Source: Candidatus Cloacimonadota bacterium (GTDB lineage Bacteria > Cloacimonadota > Cloacimonadia > Cloacimonadales > JAIOQZ01). From it: a stretch of DNA of 33,513 bases. Numbering within the stretch: position 1 is the first letter of the stretch; each line of letters starts with the position of its first letter. Both the position numbers and the translations under genes were made by a program. This document shows, one piece after another, positions 2,299 to 9,666 of this stretch. The notes below the pieces were generated by a model. The model saw nothing but the letters and a program-made list of their open reading frames with translations, was not told the DNA's origin and searched no databases. Location: NCBI GenBank assembly GCA_021108395.1, contig JAIOQZ010000015.1:1-33513 (forward strand), in the 5' to 3' direction.

Positions 2299-5121
2299 CT
2301 ATAATGAGCGAAAGAAAGCGGTGACAATATCGAGCAGCTCGATGGGGTCTTGTGTGGCGCGCCAGGGTGTCGGCGAAATCTCGTTGAAATAGTGGCCATA
2401 TGACTTGGTGAGCACACGGCGGTCGAGGATGAGGATGACCCCGCGGTCACTGCGGGAGCGGATGAGCCGCCCCACCCCCTGCCGGAAGCGCAGCAGCGCC
2501 GTAGGAAGCTGATAGTGTTGAAACGGATTCAGCCCCTGCCGCTTCAGGCGCTCGATGTGAGCCTCGACTATCGGCTCGCTGGGTACCTGGAAGGGCAGCT
2601 TGTACAGCGCCAGCATCGACAGCGCCGCGCCGCGTACGTCCACGCCTTCCCAGAAGCTGCTGGTGCCAAGCAGCACCGACGAGTCGTGGCGGCGAAACTG
2701 ATTCAGCAGTGAGGTGCGGCCTGTTCCGCGTCGCTGTGCCAGCAGCATGATGTCCTGCTCATAGAGCGGCTGTGCAAGGAAGTCTGCGGCGTTTTGCAGG
2801 TCGCGGTGAGAGGTGAATAACACCAGGCTGCCCGTGCGGGTTTGCCCAATGAGATCGCGCAGTACCGCCAGCGCCTGCGGACGGAAAAAGTCGTCCTTGG
2901 GATCGGGCAGAAAGCCGGCCACCAATACGCGGCACTGCTTCGTGTAATCAAAGGGCGAAGGCACGACAAGCTCGCGGCGATTTTCCTGGCGATCAAGACC
3001 TACGCGGTGCGCGAAATATTTGAACACGCCGCGCAGAGCCAGCGTAGCCGATGTGCACACCAGCGTTTCGAGCCGGTCATAGAGGCGCTCGTTCAGAATC
3101 TCGTCGATGTTGAGCGGGGCGGCGTGAAGCATGCCGTTGGGCGCGTCCTGCTCGGCGTTGAAGGAACTGAGCCAGTAGGCGTGGTCATCGAAGTCGGGTT
3201 GCAGAAACGGTTCGAGCGAGACGCGGAATTCGCCGCAGCGCTGCACTGTGCCATCCAGCCGGTTCAGATGGGCGTCTTGCTCGCCAAAAAGCTGTGCACT
3301 GGTGGTGGCCAGGGATTCACGCAGGTTGATGAGGCGGCGCTCGAGTTCGGCAAACATCGCGGCGGCTGCCTCCAGCCCTGGTTGCAGGAAAGCGTGAGTG
3401 GCCATGTCGCGCAGGCGCAGCTTGCCATAGCTGCCCTCGCGCTCGCACACGCTGCCGGCGTTCACAAACAGCCCCTTCAGCTCGAAGCCGCCATCCTCGA
3501 TCAGATGCTCGATAGCCTCGGTGGCGTGTTGAAGCGTCTGCTTTTTGTCATCGGGAATGCCGCTCTTTGCCACCGCCGCCTTGAACAGCGGCAGCGTGCC
3601 GCCCTGCCAGCGACTTCGCGCTGAACTGAGCTGCCCGAAAAACACGTTGATGTCCGTCCAGGAAAGCGTGATGCCGAGGTGGTGTGAAGCGGCGTCTGAC
3701 AGATTGTGCGCCTCGTCGATGACCAAGCGCTTATAGTCGCCCAGCGTGGTGTTTCCGCCCATCACATCGGTCAGCAGCAGACTGTGGTTCACGATGACGA
3801 TGTGGGCGTCTTCGCTACGGCGGCGCACGTCCATGAGCCAGCAACGCTTGAAGTGGCTGCAACGTTTGCCCATGCAAAAGTGGCGGTCGGCGGCCAGGCG
3901 CTTCCAGAGCGAGGCATACTGTTTGCGCGAGAACGAACTGTTCTCCGAGATGTCGCCGGTGCGGGTTTGCTCTACCCAGACCACGAGCTGCAACAGGCCG
4001 CCCGCTTCCCACGGCGAAACGCCACGCTGCGGGGTCAGCTCGCTCCACTTGCGCGGACAGACGTAGTTGTCGCGGCCCTTCAGCAGCACGGCGTGAAAAG
4101 GAACGTCCACTGCGTCGCGGATGGCCGGCAGGTCTTTGTGAAACAGTTGTTCCTGCAAGTTTTTAGTGTTGGTGCTCACCACCACCCGCGTCTGCGTGCG
4201 CTCGGCGAACTGTATGGCCGGCACGAGATAGGCCAGCGATTTGCCAACCCCAGTGCCCGCTTCCACCAGAAGGCATTCACCGGTGTGCAGCGCCTGCTCG
4301 ACGGCACTGGCCATTTCCACCTGGCCCTGGCGATACTCGTAGCCCTCGAAGTGGCCGGCGAACAGCCCGCCGTCGCCAAAGACCGCCTCGAGCGGATAGA
4401 CCTTGCCCGAGGGCACATCGTGCTCGATGGCGTTGGCGGGGGCGAACTCGCGGGCGGTGGGTTGTTTGACAAGCAGCGCGTGGCGGCGCTGGTGGTCGGT
4501 GACACGTTCGAGCAGCCAGGCCAGCTCCGATTTGTCTGATGAGAGGGCTGCCAGCTCGAGCAGGCGGACGTTGACTGCCAACGGCACATGGTCGTGCATG
4601 TGCGCCAGCAAGTACAGCAGCACATGGCCGGTGGCCTCGGCGTCATCGATGGCGCGGTGCGCCCGCAGGATTTCGACGCCACACGCCGCGGCGACTGTCT
4701 CGAGCTTGTGATTGTCGATAAACGGTTGAAATATGCGGCTCAGGGTGAGGGTGTCGAGTGTGCGGAAGGCGCGGGGCGCAAGGTTCAATCGCACCCGCAC
4801 CTCATCGTGAAAGCCGATGTCGAAGGGGGTGTTGTGGCCCACCACCAGCGACTCGCCGAGGAATTCGTCCAGCTCGCGCATGGCTGTGGCCGGGGGCTTG
4901 CCGCCAGCTAACTCGGCGTCGGTAATGCCGGTGAGCTGCTTGATGAACGCCGGCACCGGGCCGGACGGATGCACGAAGCAGTTGAAGCGTTTACTGACTT
5001 CACCGTTCTCGAAGCGCACCGCGGCAATCTCGATGATCTCGTCCCGCATGGCGTCGAGGCCGGTGGTTTCGAGATCGAAGGCGATGAAATCGAGCAGTGG
5101 CGCGCTACCTTTCAACCTCAT
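2299..5121 (-). CDS. dinG: DinG-type ATP-dependent helicase with N-terminal DnaQ-like exonuclease
   Basis: This 940-residue fusion has an N-terminal DEDDh 3'-5' exonuclease domain at about 10-175. D16 and E18 lie in FDLETTG, D101 in HNTPFD, and the HxxxD motif is at 155-159. A superfamily 2 DinG/XPD-like helicase follows, with Walker A AGTGVGKS at 288-295, DEAH at 469-472 and a late GVGRLIRS motif VI. Four cysteines between Walker A and DEAH (355, 416, 421, 427) fit the XPD/DinG [4Fe-4S] cluster. Exonuclease-DinG fusions are known in Firmicutes, although those often lack the cluster cysteines. The likely role is unwinding and trimming of damaged or structured DNA and R-loops. The start overlaps the 3' end of the upstream activator gene by 17 nt, implying one transcript. 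Confidence 0.93.
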   Translation of the reverse strand: MRLKGSAPLLDFIAFDLETTGLDAMRDEIIEIAAVRFENGEVSKRFNCFVHPSGPVPAFIKQLTGITDAELAGGKPPATAMRELDEFLGESLVVGHNTPFDIGFHDEVRVRLNLAPRAFRTLDTLTLSRIFQPFIDNHKLETVAAACGVEILRAHRAIDDAEATGHVLLYLLAHMHDHVPLAVNVRLLELAALSSDKSELAWLLERVTDHQRRHALLVKQPTAREFAPANAIEHDVPSGKVYPLEAVFGDGGLFAGHFEGYEYRQGQVEMASAVEQALHTGECLLVEAGTGVGKSLAYLVPAIQFAERTQTRVVVSTNTKNLQEQLFHKDLPAIRDAVDVPFHAVLLKGRDNYVCPRKWSELTPQRGVSPWEAGGLLQLVVWVEQTRTGDISENSSFSRKQYASLWKRLAADRHFCMGKRCSHFKRCWLMDVRRRSEDAHIVIVNHSLLLTDVMGGNTTLGDYKRLVIDEAHNLSDAASHHLGITLSWTDINVFFGQLSSARSRWQGGTLPLFKAAVAKSGIPDDKKQTLQHATEAIEHLIEDGGFELKGLFVNAGSVCEREGSYGKLRLRDMATHAFLQPGLEAAAAMFAELERRLINLRESLATTSAQLFGEQDAHLNRLDGTVQRCGEFRVSLEPFLQPDFDDHAYWLSSFNAEQDAPNGMLHAAPLNIDEILNERLYDRLETLVCTSATLALRGVFKYFAHRVGLDRQENRRELVVPSPFDYTKQCRVLVAGFLPDPKDDFFRPQALAVLRDLIGQTRTGSLVLFTSHRDLQNAADFLAQPLYEQDIMLLAQRRGTGRTSLLNQFRRHDSSVLLGTSSFWEGVDVRGAALSMLALYKLPFQVPSEPIVEAHIERLKRQGLNPFQHYQLPTALLRFRQGVGRLIRSRSDRGVILILDRRVLTKSYGHYFNEISPTPWRATQDPIELLDIVTAFFRSL

Positions 5122-8100
5122 ACCGCTTCATCTTCTTAATGAGTCCCTGGCGCGACAGGCCGAGGTCTTTGGCGGCCTGGGTTTGGTTCCAGCCGCGGCT
5201 TTCCAGCGATTTGAGGATCATCTTCTTCTCGAGGCTCTCGACAGCCTCTTTGAGGGCAACCTTGTCCAGCAGATCAATCGTCTCGGCGTTGTCGGCGTAT
5301 TTGAACACCTCCTCCGAGAGATCGCCCGGCTTGATGAACGACTCGTTCTCGGCCAGAGTCACCGCCCGCTCTATCTCGTTTTCGAGCTGACGAATGTTGC
5401 CCGGCCAGTCGCAATTGCTCATATACTTCATCGCCTCGTCGGTAATGCCCAGCACATTCTTGCTCATCTTCTTGTTGTACTTGTCGAGGAAGTGGATGGC
5501 CAGCAGCGGGACATCGCTCTTGCGCTCCTTGAGGGAGGGAATCGAAATCTTGATGACGTTCAGGCGATAGTAGAGGTCGAGGCGGAATTCGCCATTATTC
5601 ACTCTCTCCTGCAACGACACGTTGGTGGCGCAGATAACGCGCACATCCACCTTCGTGGTCTTGGTCGAGCCAACTCGCTTCAGCTCGCCTTCCTGAAGGA
5701 AACGCAACAGCTTTGCCTGGGTCGAGAGCGTGATGTCGGCAATCTCGTCGAGGAAGAAGGTGCCGCCGTCAGCGATCTCGAAGAGGCCCTTTTTGTCATA
5801 GACCGCGCCGGTAAAGCTGCCTTTCACATGGCCGAACAGTTCGCTTTCGAGCAGTGTTTCGGGCAAGGCGCCACAATACTGCGCCACGAACTTCTTGTTG
5901 CGCCGGTTGCTGGTGTAGTGGATAGCGCGGGCGATGAGCTCTTTGCCGGTTCCGCTGGGGCCTTCCAGCAGCACGGTGGTTGGCGTGTTCTTTATCTTCT
6001 CGATGACATTGAAGATTTCCTGAATGCGCTCGCTCTTGCCAATGATGTTAGTGAAGCTCTGGCTGGCATTGAGCTCCTCACGAATGATGGCATGGCTGCG
6101 GGTGAGGTTCGAGTGACGGATGTTTTCGAGAATGACCACGATCTGGTTGCACAACGCGCTCATCAGGTTATACATCTTCTCGGTGAAGTAGTGGCTGCCG
6201 TGTTTGCTGAACAGCAAGATAACGCCCAGATTGTTGCCGCGAATCATCAGCGGGAAGCAGATGATGTTGTTGAACTGCGGCGCCGAGTGCGGCTGCTTGA
6301 TGTTCAAGCCCTCGCCTTTGATAAACGCATCCTGGATGTACTCCATGAGGATGTCGTAGTCGGCTTCCTCGCTGGTGAAGTGATTGAACACCTGGTACTC
6401 CCAGCCCTCTGGAACGCTACGGCTGTTGTAAAGGCAGATGATGCCGCCGTCGGCTTCGCTCAGCTCCACCAGGTTATCCAGCGCCGTGTCGATGAGAACG
6501 TCGAAATCGGAAATGGTGTTGAGGCTTTGGGTAATCTCGTAGAACTTGGTGAGCAGCGACTCCTGGCTGCGGCTCTCTTTCAGCTCTATCGCGTGTTCCT
6601 TCATAATCTTCTGGATGAGGATGTCGTTTTTTTCGAGGAACTTGATCGCATCGAAGTCCTTGATAATCTTCTTGTTGTTCTGCAATATTTGCAGCGCCTG
6701 CTCCCACTCCTGCTTGTCGAAGAGGATATGGGCGTATTCGTAGTTAGCCTGGGCCAGCTCGAAGTTGTTCTTGGTTTCCACGAATATCTCGATGGCGCGC
6801 TCAAGCGACTTCTGACACTTCTCACGGTCGTTCTTTTCCAGCAGAGCCTTGAGAAAATAGGCGTTGCCCACCTCGAACTTGCTGTTTAGCTCCTCGGCCA
6901 TCTTGATAGCCTGGTCGAGGTAGTAGCTGGCGCTCTCGTAGTTGCGCGTCTGAATGAAGTAGTAAGCCTGCTTCTGACAGGCCTCGATCATCAGCTTGTC
7001 CTTGGCGTTGATGCTCTTGAAGAAGTCGTAGCTCTCGACCAGATAGGCATAGGCCTTGCCAAAGTTATGCAGGTGGGTGAGCACGCTGCCGAGGTTGCCG
7101 TACAGCTCGGCCTTCAGTATCTCGTCCTGCACGTCGGGCAGAATCTCGAGGCCTTTGAAGTAGAGATCATACGCGAGGTTATATTCGCCTCGCTTCTCGA
7201 AAAGCTCGCCAAGATTGTTATAGCTCGTGCACAACCCCTCGAGAAAGTTGTTCTCTTTGCTGCGCTCGATGGCACGCTCATAGTGCTCGATGGCGCGAGT
7301 CCACTTTCCGCTCTTGAAGTACAGCGCCCCCAGGTTGTTCAGCGCGGCAATGATGCTGCGGTAGAGGTTGAAGTTGATGGCCGTCTGCAACGATTGCTTG
7401 AAGGCTTTGTCCGCTTCCTCATACTCGGCGTTGTCCATGTAGGTGACACCGATATTGTTATAGATATTTGTAATGTTGTAGCGGTCGGAGAGCAGTTTTT
7501 GGATGTGAAGCGCTTCGTAGAGGTAGTTGAGCGATTTCTTGTAATCGCCCCTATCCTCCAGCAAGCCGCCCAGATTGTTGTAACAAACCGATATCCCGTT
7601 GAGATTGAAACGCTGTTGCTCGAGCTTGAGGCTCCTGGTATATAGCTCTTCGGTCTTGTCCCACTCACCCTGAAACATGGCCAATACGCCCAGATTGTTG
7701 TAAATGGCGGCCAGCCCCTCGGAGTCGTTGGCGCGACGGAAAAGCTGCTCGGCCTCACGGAACACCGCCTCGGCGTTCTCGAACTGGTTCGAGAAGTAAT
7801 AGACCTTGCCCTTGATCTTCTTGCACAGGCCCTGTATTTGACCGCGAACCATCTCATCCTTGATCTTGACTGAGACTTCCATAGCGCTTTCGAGATAGGT
7901 GAAGGCGTCGTCGAAGTGTTCGAGGTCGGTGATGATGTCGGCCTGAAGCATAAGCAACCGACAGCGCCAATAGTCATCCTTGGCATTGGGCTCGTATTTC
8001 TTGATAACCTCCAGAGCGAACGCGGAGGAATTGATGGAAAAGAGGCTTTCCGCAAGCTGAAAAACCACTTCTTCTGCTGGGAATTGGTGCGTGGTGCACA

Positions 8101-9391
8101 GACGCAACGCCTGACGGAAGTTCTCTGCCGAGGCCTCGATATTATTGAGACACTTGTTCGTGATGCCCAGTTCCATCAGCAGTTTCACCTGCTGATCTGG
8201 CTTGTCGGTTTTTTCGAGAAGCACATTGTCGAGGGTGCGCAAAGTCTCGTGGTCGTTCAGCAACATGAGGTATTGCACCGTAGGCGTGATTAACTTGAGA
8301 TGCAGGTCGTTGACGATAAATTGGTAGTATGACTGGCCGAAAGGGGTGATTCCCAGCGGCTCGGCGGCTTTCTTCAGGAACTCGCGCACCGTCTTGCGCT
8401 GTTCGTCAGCCGGCCGTTCGAGAAAGTAATTGCGAAAGACGGCGGTCTTGCCGATGACCAGGCGGTCGTTGCGAATCATGACCAGTCCCTCGTCGATCAG
8501 GATATCGAGATCTTTGCCCAGTGGCTTGCCGTCAAACATCTCCTCAATCTGTTCACGGCTGGCGCGCCCATCTATGAGGAACACCAGAACCGCCAACTGA
8601 TGTCGCCGCTGTGTAAGGCCTTCTGTGAAGTCGCGGTAGATGCGCTCGACACTGAGTTTGTCGTCGAGATAGTTGGAGAGATCAAAGTTTCTGCCCTTAT
8701 TGCCTTTACGGGACGATTTACCGTAGAAGCGGTTCAGCAGGCGTTCGATGATGAAAAGATTACCGCCGGTGATATTGAGCAGTACTTCGCTCTGAGTAAT
8801 CAGCTCAGTCTTGTCGGAGTCGAACAGGCTGGTGAGCACCTGGTGAATCTCGTCTGTATCGAGGTATTCCAGCTTGACCTTTTTCGAGAAAAGGAAGGTG
8901 GGCTCTGTGGTGAAGGTGAGAAAGACGATGCGTTTGTCGGTGGCGTACTGCACCAGGTATTCCATGAAAAGCAGCGTGAATTCATCGAGCACATTGCAGT
9001 TGTCCAGCAGCACGATCTGGGAATCGAAGTGTTCTTGCTCGCTGAGCTTTTCGCTGAGAAAGTAGAAGAAATCGTACCTGTTCGTCAGCTTGAATTGCTC
9101 CGAGGAATTCACCAGAGTAGAGTATTGATCATCATCGATACCGGTAAGCAGGCAAACGAGATTGCGCACCTGGTTGAAGCTGAAGATTCTGGGCGCATAC
9201 TCACGGTACTCGATCTTGCGCTCGGCCATCGTCTGTTGCAGACGCTCACAGAGGTAGGATTTGCCCGTTCCGGTAGGGCCAATCACCTCGACAATGCAAC
9301 TGCCGGGCTCCTCGATATGTTCGATAACTGAATCGATGATGTCGGGTTTGACGACGTAGCGCATCAGGACGTCGTTTATCTTTTTGTCCAT
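5105..9391 (-). CDS. Giant sigma-54-dependent activator: NTPase-TPR-GAF-AAA+-Fis HTH
   Basis: The start at 9391 is chosen because AAGGAG lies at correct spacing before it; the frame stays open further upstream without a ribosome site. The 1428-residue product begins with a P-loop NTPase, with GPTGTGKS at 38-45 and a LLDNCN Walker-B-like stretch near 125, resembling STAND/ORC-type sensory ATPases. A long helical region from about 400 to 960 contains many TPR units, with repeated NNLG, YNNLGxL and LExxxDY-type patterns. A GAF-like domain follows at about 980-1110. The sigma-54 AAA+ domain has Walker A GPSGTGKE at 1144-1151, GSFTGA (the sigma-54 contact loop, with Ser for the usual Ala) at 1191-1196, and FFLDEI around 1212-1217. 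A Fis-type helix-turn-helix closes the protein. It should activate RpoN-dependent promoters in response to ligand or partner binding. Targets are unknown. Confidence 0.9.
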   Translation of the reverse strand: MDKKINDVLMRYVVKPDIIDSVIEHIEEPGSCIVEVIGPTGTGKSYLCERLQQTMAERKIEYREYAPRIFSFNQVRNLVCLLTGIDDDQYSTLVNSSEQFKLTNRYDFFYFLSEKLSEQEHFDSQIVLLDNCNVLDEFTLLFMEYLVQYATDKRIVFLTFTTEPTFLFSKKVKLEYLDTDEIHQVLTSLFDSDKTELITQSEVLLNITGGNLFIIERLLNRFYGKSSRKGNKGRNFDLSNYLDDKLSVERIYRDFTEGLTQRRHQLAVLVFLIDGRASREQIEEMFDGKPLGKDLDILIDEGLVMIRNDRLVIGKTAVFRNYFLERPADEQRKTVREFLKKAAEPLGITPFGQSYYQFIVNDLHLKLITPTVQYLMLLNDHETLRTLDNVLLEKTDKPDQQVKLLMELGITNKCLNNIEASAENFRQALRLCTTHQFPAEEVVFQLAESLFSINSSAFALEVIKKYEPNAKDDYWRCRLLMLQADIITDLEHFDDAFTYLESAMEVSVKIKDEMVRGQIQGLCKKIKGKVYYFSNQFENAEAVFREAEQLFRRANDSEGLAAIYNNLGVLAMFQGEWDKTEELYTRSLKLEQQRFNLNGISVCYNNLGGLLEDRGDYKKSLNYLYEALHIQKLLSDRYNITNIYNNIGVTYMDNAEYEEADKAFKQSLQTAINFNLYRSIIAALNNLGALYFKSGKWTRAIEHYERAIERSKENNFLEGLCTSYNNLGELFEKRGEYNLAYDLYFKGLEILPDVQDEILKAELYGNLGSVLTHLHNFGKAYAYLVESYDFFKSINAKDKLMIEACQKQAYYFIQTRNYESASYYLDQAIKMAEELNSKFEVGNAYFLKALLEKNDREKCQKSLERAIEIFVETKNNFELAQANYEYAHILFDKQEWEQALQILQNNKKIIKDFDAIKFLEKNDILIQKIMKEHAIELKESRSQESLLTKFYEITQSLNTISDFDVLIDTALDNLVELSEADGGIICLYNSRSVPEGWEYQVFNHFTSEEADYDILMEYIQDAFIKGEGLNIKQPHSAPQFNNIICFPLMIRGNNLGVILLFSKHGSHYFTEKMYNLMSALCNQIVVILENIRHSNLTRSHAIIREELNASQSFTNIIGKSERIQEIFNVIEKIKNTPTTVLLEGPSGTGKELIARAIHYTSNRRNKKFVAQYCGALPETLLESELFGHVKGSFTGAVYDKKGLFEIADGGTFFLDEIADITLSTQAKLLRFLQEGELKRVGSTKTTKVDVRVICATNVSLQERVNNGEFRLDLYYRLNVIKISIPSLKERKSDVPLLAIHFLDKYNKKMSKNVLGITDEAMKYMSNCDWPGNIRQLENEIERAVTLAENESFIKPGDLSEEVFKYADNAETIDLLDKVALKEAVESLEKKMILKSLESRGWNQTQAAKDLGLSRQGLIKKMKRYEVER

Positions 9392-9434
9392 GCCGTGCTC
9401 CTTGGTCGCAGACAGAATAAAGTGTTGACGCAGG

Positions 9435-9635
9435 TTTACAGTAAGGGCGAGCCTCGAAGCAAGCCCTGGTTTACAAACCACGAAGAGCCTGAAAGGCCTG
9501 CTTACTGTAAGTCCCTGGCGTGCAACCCCAAAGACAAACGATAATGCGTCCCCTGCTCATCCTGTAAACGTTCGTAACACCCACGAAAAAATGTAAATGA
9601 AGTGCTATACTTGTCAACAAAGTTTTTTTTGTAAA
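9435..9635. promoter_or_regulatory. Array of TTTACA/TGTAAA hexamers upstream of the activator gene
   Basis: Five exact copies of one hexamer lie in the 275-nt gap before the activator gene. TTTACA occurs at 9435 and 9470, and its complement TGTAAA at 9563, 9592 and 9630. Degenerate relatives include CTTACTGTAA at 9501-9510, which forms a 10-bp inverted repeat with TTACAGTAAG at 9436-9445. The copy at 9470 sits in a 5-2-5 palindrome (GGTTT, two bases, AAACC). About 0.1 copies would be expected by chance in this length. The arrangement suggests binding sites for a regulator, possibly the activator itself. Confidence 0.5.
9590..9617 (-). promoter_or_regulatory. Candidate sigma-70-type promoter for the activator gene
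   Basis: Read on the minus strand there is a perfect -35 box TTGACA (9612-9617), a 16-nt spacer and TACATT (9590-9595) as a 4/6 match to -10. The -10 box overlaps one of the TTTACA-type hexamers (9592), and another hexamer (9630) lies just upstream of the -35 box. Transcription would begin about 190 nt before the start codon. No -24/-12 (RpoN) element was seen here. Confidence 0.45.
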
Positions 9636-9666
9636 GTTAGATTACAGTTTCTGGACAGGCTGTGAA

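What the first reader, a model, noticed from the sequence alone, without database searches (positions are those of the whole stretch)
9435..9635. Hexamer array around the promoter of the giant activator
Five exact TTTACA/TGTAAA copies lie within 201 nt, where about 0.1 is expected. The two near the gene face one way and the three farther away face the other. One overlaps the -10 box of the candidate promoter. A 10-bp inverted repeat (9436-9445, 9501-9510) extends the motif.
Basis: partly seen in the sequence, partly recalled or inferred. Interest (0 to 1): 0.52.

Follow-up and report, generated by a model that had tools for sequence, protein, structure and literature searches.

The report
Conserved self-control switch of giant regulator
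The repeated six-letter words mark a real, ancient control site in front of the gene for a very large bacterial gene regulator, which most likely binds there to adjust its own production; only one of the five words is part of the conserved site.

Summary
The five TTTACA/TGTAAA copies are exactly where stated and far above background for this genome (none of 39 copies in a 240-kb sample has a second copy within 201 nt). The window is a Candidatus Cloacimonadota genome. The gene (5105-9391, minus strand) encodes a 1428-aa NTPase-TPR-GAF-sigma54 AAA+-Fis-HTH protein. Comparison with orthologues changes the picture: only the outermost hexamer (9630-9635) is conserved. It is the right half of a 17-bp inverted repeat, TGTAA-N6-TTTACA (9630-9646), followed by ACTTTGTTGACAA. 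This composite occurs once in this genome. Across the order, 27 of 30 examined loci with the exact composite lie directly before the same giant gene. A second layout, with the repeat just inside the -35 element, does so in 29 of 30. The repeat has the TGT-N11-ACA form reported for Fis-type enhancer-binding proteins. Best reading: an autoregulatory operator bound by the giant protein's own HTH, probably repressive. The other four hexamers are specific to this genome: one matches a half-site position used in another family, and two lie in a stable leader-RNA hairpin; their function is unproven. Binding and the sign of control are inferred, not shown.

The parts
9630..9646 (.). 17-bp inverted-repeat operator; gene strand TGTAATCTAACTTTACA; contains the outermost hexamer 9630-9635
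   Evidence: Only exact TGTAAWN5WTTACA in the 2.89-Mb genome; conserved in orthologues
9611..9623 (-). ACTTTGTTGACAA, conserved -35 region (TTGACA = 9612-9617)
   Evidence: Only exact copy in the genome; consensus AAAACnTtGTTGACAAA in 24 distinct orthologue sites
9590..9595 (-). candidate -10 TACATT, spacer 16
   Evidence: a -10 is not conserved in orthologues
9592..9597 (-). TTTACA half-site over the -10; TTGACA-N14-TTTACA spacing as in 8 of 12 f10-type promoters
   Evidence: functional role inferred
9563..9568 (-). additional TTTACA, specific to this genome
   Evidence: no counterpart seen in orthologues
9470..9475 (+). additional TTTACA in the leader, in the tip of the RNA hairpin
9435..9440 (+). 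additional TTTACA in the leader, in the hairpin stem
9430..9515 (-). 86-nt predicted leader-RNA hairpin built on the 10-bp inverted repeat
   Evidence: -32.9 kcal/mol, z -2.69, 1 of 200 shuffles as good; no significant second copy in the genome
5105..9391 (-). gene for the 1428-aa STAND-like NTPase + TPR + GAF + sigma54 AAA+ + Fis-HTH protein

Best explanation
Shown: a conserved promoter-operator belongs to this one gene across the order. It is TGTAA-N6-TTTACA, then 9-16 nt, then TTGACAA; in family f10 the inverted repeat sits just downstream of TTGACA instead. Inferred: the giant enhancer-binding protein's own Fis-type HTH dimer binds the inverted repeat and controls its own sigma70-type promoter, most likely by repression (negative feedback), so that the level of this large sensor stays low and steady. 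In this genome four further half-sites lie over the -10 and in the leader; they may add weaker binding places that strengthen the repression. Likelihoods as I see them: a real operator 0.95; bound by the protein itself 0.65; net repression 0.5; extra hexamers functional 0.4.
For: Operator plus -35 composite with 2 or fewer mismatches in 20 of 23 non-f10 upstream regions (window included; 12 exact) against 1 of 2300 shuffles; all 12 f10-type regions (11 of f10, plus named record L032) carry TGTNAA-N5-TTTACA right after TTGACA. Independent check: of the 30 loci fetched for the exact composite, 15 come from genomes not seen when the pattern was set, and 14 of these 15 precede the giant gene, the other being cut by a contig end soon after the operator. 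Overall 27 of 30 and, for the f10 layout, 29 of 30. The exact inverted repeat and exact ACTTTGTTGACAA each occur once in this genome, which argues against a global regulator. The site is TGT-N11-ACA; PMC6615313 (passages read) reports UAS motifs of TGT and ACA spaced 10-12 bp for 15 groups of enhancer-binding proteins. The recognition-helix stretch SRQGLI is identical in 31 of 31 orthologues aligned and 4 of 4 more, matching the near-invariant half-site. In G060 two copies of the giant's N-terminus each keep an operator in front. Precedent: NtrC autorepresses ntrBC (PMC10746234, passages); autoregulated EBP genes with conserved motifs were proposed in Desulfovibrio (PMC4641369, passages).
Against: No binding data. 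In G019 and G031 the giant's operator is degenerate (4 and 3 mismatches) although the G019 helix stays SRQGLI. G018 is also weak (3). G019 has a perfect composite elsewhere without the giant downstream (L147), and G020 (L236, before a YggS-like ORF, my reading) and G043 (L219) have matches away from the giant. Upstream of -35 is an ordinary place for an activator, so the sign is uncertain. No conserved -10 was found. No sigma54 target of the protein was identified.
Confidence: 0.62

Rival explanations
1. A different, dedicated regulator binds the conserved inverted repeat and controls the giant gene.
For: Nothing in sequence proves self-binding; G019 keeps a perfect site away from the giant gene.
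Against: One exact site per genome would mean a regulator kept across the order for a single target; the site form fits the giant's own HTH class.
Confidence: 0.22
2. Only 9630-9646 is an operator; the other four hexamers are chance words in AT-rich promoter DNA and in a leader hairpin.
For: They have no counterparts in the orthologue upstream regions seen; two lie in an 86-nt hairpin; window-wide, clusters of some hexamer this dense also arise in block shuffles.
Against: Given TTTACA as an independently supported half-site, 4 extra copies in 232 nt were reached in 0 of 5000 shuffles; the one at 9592 has the TTGACA-N14 spacing of 8 of 12 f10-type operators.
Confidence: 0.5
3. The leader acts as RNA: the 10-bp inverted repeat forms a hairpin that tunes translation or transcript life, and the hexamers there are incidental.
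For: -32.9 kcal/mol, z -2.69; whole leader z -2.68.
Against: No Rfam family, best E 1.5 and far below gathering score; found in this genome only, and its same-family relative G001 lacks the gene's N-terminal region in its assembly, so no covariation test was possible.
Confidence: 0.3
4. Positive autoregulation: the protein, or a partner, bound just upstream of -35 recruits sigma70 polymerase.
For: The operator lies upstream of TTGACA in most families, and -10 elements are poor.
Against: In f10 the operator lies between and over core promoter elements, the usual place of a repressor; EBPs normally activate sigma54 polymerase only (general knowledge).
Confidence: 0.22

Closest known systems
Autorepressed EBP genes such as ntrBC (NtrC)
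   Same: An EBP gene with an EBP-type site at its own promoter; negative feedback known for NtrC (PMC10746234, passages)
   Different: Here the protein is a 1428-aa NTPase-TPR-GAF fusion and not a response regulator; repression is untested
UAS of Fis-type EBPs (TGT-N10-12-ACA; NifA, FhlA, Clostridiales groups)
   Same: 17-bp inverted repeat TGT-N11-ACA
   Different: Sits at a TTGACA promoter, not 100-250 bp upstream of a -24/-12 promoter
Putatively autoregulated EBPs DVU1949/DVU2894 of Desulfovibrio (PMC4641369, passages)
   Same: Autoregulation proposed; conserved motif upstream of the regulator's own operon or orthologues
   Different: Different repeat (yGTCA-N6-TGACr for DVU2894) and different protein architecture

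Membership tests
Bacterial enhancer-binding proteins (sigma54 activators) | Sigma54-interaction AAA+ domain | tested here: met
   PF00158 E 2.9e-70
Bacterial enhancer-binding proteins (sigma54 activators) | GAFTGA sigma54-contact loop | tested here: inconclusive
   GSFTGA in 30 of 31, GAYTGA in one; a near variant
Bacterial enhancer-binding proteins (sigma54 activators) | Fis-type HTH at the C-terminus | tested here: met
   PF02954 E 1.8e-13
Bacterial enhancer-binding proteins (sigma54 activators) | RpoN present in the genome | tested here: met
   PF04552 in G000 and in 38 of 39 genomes
NifA (equivalog TIGR01817) | Score above the curated cut-off | tested here: not met
   373.6 bits against 528.85
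Fis-type EBP upstream activating sequence | TGT-N10-12-ACA inverted repeat | tested here: met
   TGT-N11-ACA at 9630-9646
Fis-type EBP upstream activating sequence | Lies upstream of a -24/-12 promoter | tested here: not met
   No -24/-12 site scoring 9 of 12 or more within 200 nt of the operator (L033)
Autoregulatory operator of an EBP gene | Site conserved before orthologues of the same gene | tested here: met
   27 of 30 and 29 of 30 loci
Autoregulatory operator of an EBP gene | Protein binds the site and changes its own transcription | not testable with these tools
   Needs EMSA or footprinting and a promoter fusion

The most novel reading that the evidence does not exclude
The giant enhancer-binding protein has a single strong binding site in the genome, its own promoter, so its HTH serves self-dosage alone, while it would activate sigma54 promoters without a fixed enhancer site or act mainly as an ATPase sensor. 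In one family the operator moved from upstream of -35 to inside the core promoter while the protein's recognition helix stayed the same.
Probability: 0.17. Interest if true: 0.6.

Novelty: new member of a known kind. Interest (0 to 1): 0.4.

Why it matters
It gives an operator, testable from sequence alone, for an order-wide conserved giant regulator of an uncultured-rich phylum (Cloacimonadota) whose gene control I found no paper on: one search for Cloacimonadota with sigma-54 returned none. The motif can seed the search for what the regulator controls, and the layout switch between families is a natural experiment on operator position.

Tried and rejected
Regulon search: with one mismatch the inverted repeat has 21 places in this genome against 5 for the control. 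Of the 15 fetched as loci (L033-L047), including the operator itself, ten lie inside ORFs by a crude ORF call; none had a convincing -24/-12 neighbour. In the 39 genomes there are 112 exact inverted repeats against 83 control places (my sums of its table, one strand, G000 included; 20 of the control places fall in one genome, G019); most of those looked at were inside ORFs, so no further target was claimed. A recurring TGTAAACnnnGTTTACA variant was looked at and not pursued. The conserved -35 word as a general promoter: rejected, since only 1 exact copy exists and all ten one-mismatch copies have an open frame of 100 codons or more over them. Leader as a dispersed repeat: rejected. Rfam: nothing. 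Paralogous giants' upstream regions: uninformative. The same-family genome G001 lacks the gene's N-terminus in its assembly, so the closest comparison could not be made. The protein's presence in the sister order was not tested; the composite is absent in 18 of 18 genomes of the phylum outside the order.

Full report
Observation. All five hexamers, their orientations, the overlap with a -10 candidate and the 10-bp inverted repeat are present as described. Local shuffles give 0.37 copies on average and never five (0 of 3000); some hexamer reaches five in 6 of 3000. Scanned blindly over the whole window, clusters of that density also arise in shuffles, so the count alone would not carry the finding. 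Against the same genome it does stand out: in 240 kb sampled, none of 39 copies has a neighbour within 201 nt, and 29 ORF-free stretches hold at most one copy each.

Where it is. The genome has 2,886,526 bases in 62 contigs. The named relative found is a Candidatus Cloacimonadota MAG (L032). The gene on the minus strand, 5105-9391, encodes 1428 residues: an N-terminal AAA_16-like NTPase, TPR repeats, GAF, sigma54-interaction AAA+ and a Fis-type HTH. All 39 genomes searched (own included) match the query at E <= 0.001, but in several the match is partial, or only the shared AAA+ or TPR part matches, as in G016 and G023. RpoN is present in 38 of 39 including this genome. The best NCBIfam match is NifA, below its cut-off.

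What is conserved. I extracted up to 350 nt upstream of the orthologues. L009 was dropped because its contig starts inside the gene; 35 regions were used. In 23 regions outside family f10, the composite TGTAA-N6-TTTACA, spacer, TTGACAA fits with 0 mismatches in 12, 1 in 5, 2 in 3, 3 in 2 and 4 in 1; 1 of 2300 shuffles reached 2. The pattern was read off these same sequences, so the fair test is in new genomes: the exact form was found in 32 of 106 genomes of the order, one place each, with two control hits. Of the 30 loci returned, 27 have the giant's N-terminus directly downstream; L151 ends at the contig edge, and L130 and L147 do not have it. Fifteen of the 30 are genomes I had not seen before; 14 precede the giant and one is cut off. 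In f10 (11 regions) and L032, all 12 regions carry TGTNAA-N5-TTTACA immediately after TTGACA, with a further TGTAAA half 6-7 nt on in 10, TGTCAA in 2. That layout was found in 32 of 106 genomes with no control hit; 29 of 30 loci precede the giant, the other being cut by a contig end.

In the window the operator is 9630-9646 and the -35 word 9611-9623. Each exact form is unique in the genome. Only hexamer 9630-9635 belongs to it. Hexamer 9592-9597 lies over the -10 at TTGACA-N14, the spacing seen in 8 of the 12 f10-type promoters (my count; N16 or N17 in the other four). The copies at 9563, 9470 and 9435 have no counterparts that I saw. The last two lie in an 86-nt predicted RNA hairpin of the leader, which is long here (about 190 nt if transcription starts near 9583).

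How it likely works. The site is TGT-N11-ACA. A survey of Clostridiales reports TGT and ACA at 10-12 bp for 15 groups of enhancer-binding proteins, and links motif similarity to similarity of the HTH (PMC6615313, passages). The stretch SRQGLI of the recognition helix is the same in 31 of 31 aligned orthologues and in 4 more, as is the half-site TTTACA in nearly all. A site found once per genome at the regulator's own gene is most simply an autoregulatory site. In f10 its place inside the core promoter suggests repression, as known for NtrC (PMC10746234, passages). Upstream of -35 the sign is open. Binding, sign and start site are inferred.

Results against. Three of 23 regions fit poorly: G018, G019 and G031. 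G019 keeps the same helix and has a perfect composite elsewhere with no giant behind it. G020 has a composite just upstream of an ORF that I read as YggS-like, and G043 has an f10-type match away from the giant. The -10 region is not conserved. No sigma54 target could be named.

Verdict. It is a conserved, gene-specific promoter-operator with extra half-sites of unproven function: a new member of a known kind, autoregulated enhancer-binding protein genes. A search for Cloacimonadota with sigma-54 in the paper library gave none; two wider searches on EBP autoregulation gave precedents but not this system (listings only, apart from the three papers whose passages I read).

Noticed in passing
L032, about 5030-5230; also L019, L020, L027 upstream regions: Repeated TTTGACA-N6-TGTCAC-like inverted repeats about 50 bp apart further upstream of several f10 giants; another possible regulator's array.
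   Followed up: no
L120/L147 (G019:C88:73307-73342): An exact copy of the composite operator-promoter with no giant gene downstream, while the giant of that genome has a degenerate operator.
   Followed up: partly
L221, L222, L223, L224 (G049, G060): G060 has two giant N-termini, each behind its own f10-type operator; G049 has two operators, one before a giant N-terminus and the other cut off at the contig end.
   Followed up: partly
G000:C15:336-6101 (L042-L045): Four identical TGTCATGAACAATTACA sites 1.6-2.6 kb apart, inside ORFs; probably a tandem gene array.
   Followed up: no
L037 near 1500; L205 near 1492: ATCCTG/TTTACAGGAT-rich intergenic stretches that may be a dispersed repeat of this genome.
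   Followed up: no
L236, about 2276-2312 (G020:C16:22775-22811): Composite-like operator just upstream of an ORF that reads like a YggS/PLP-homeostasis protein; a possible second target.
   Followed up: partly
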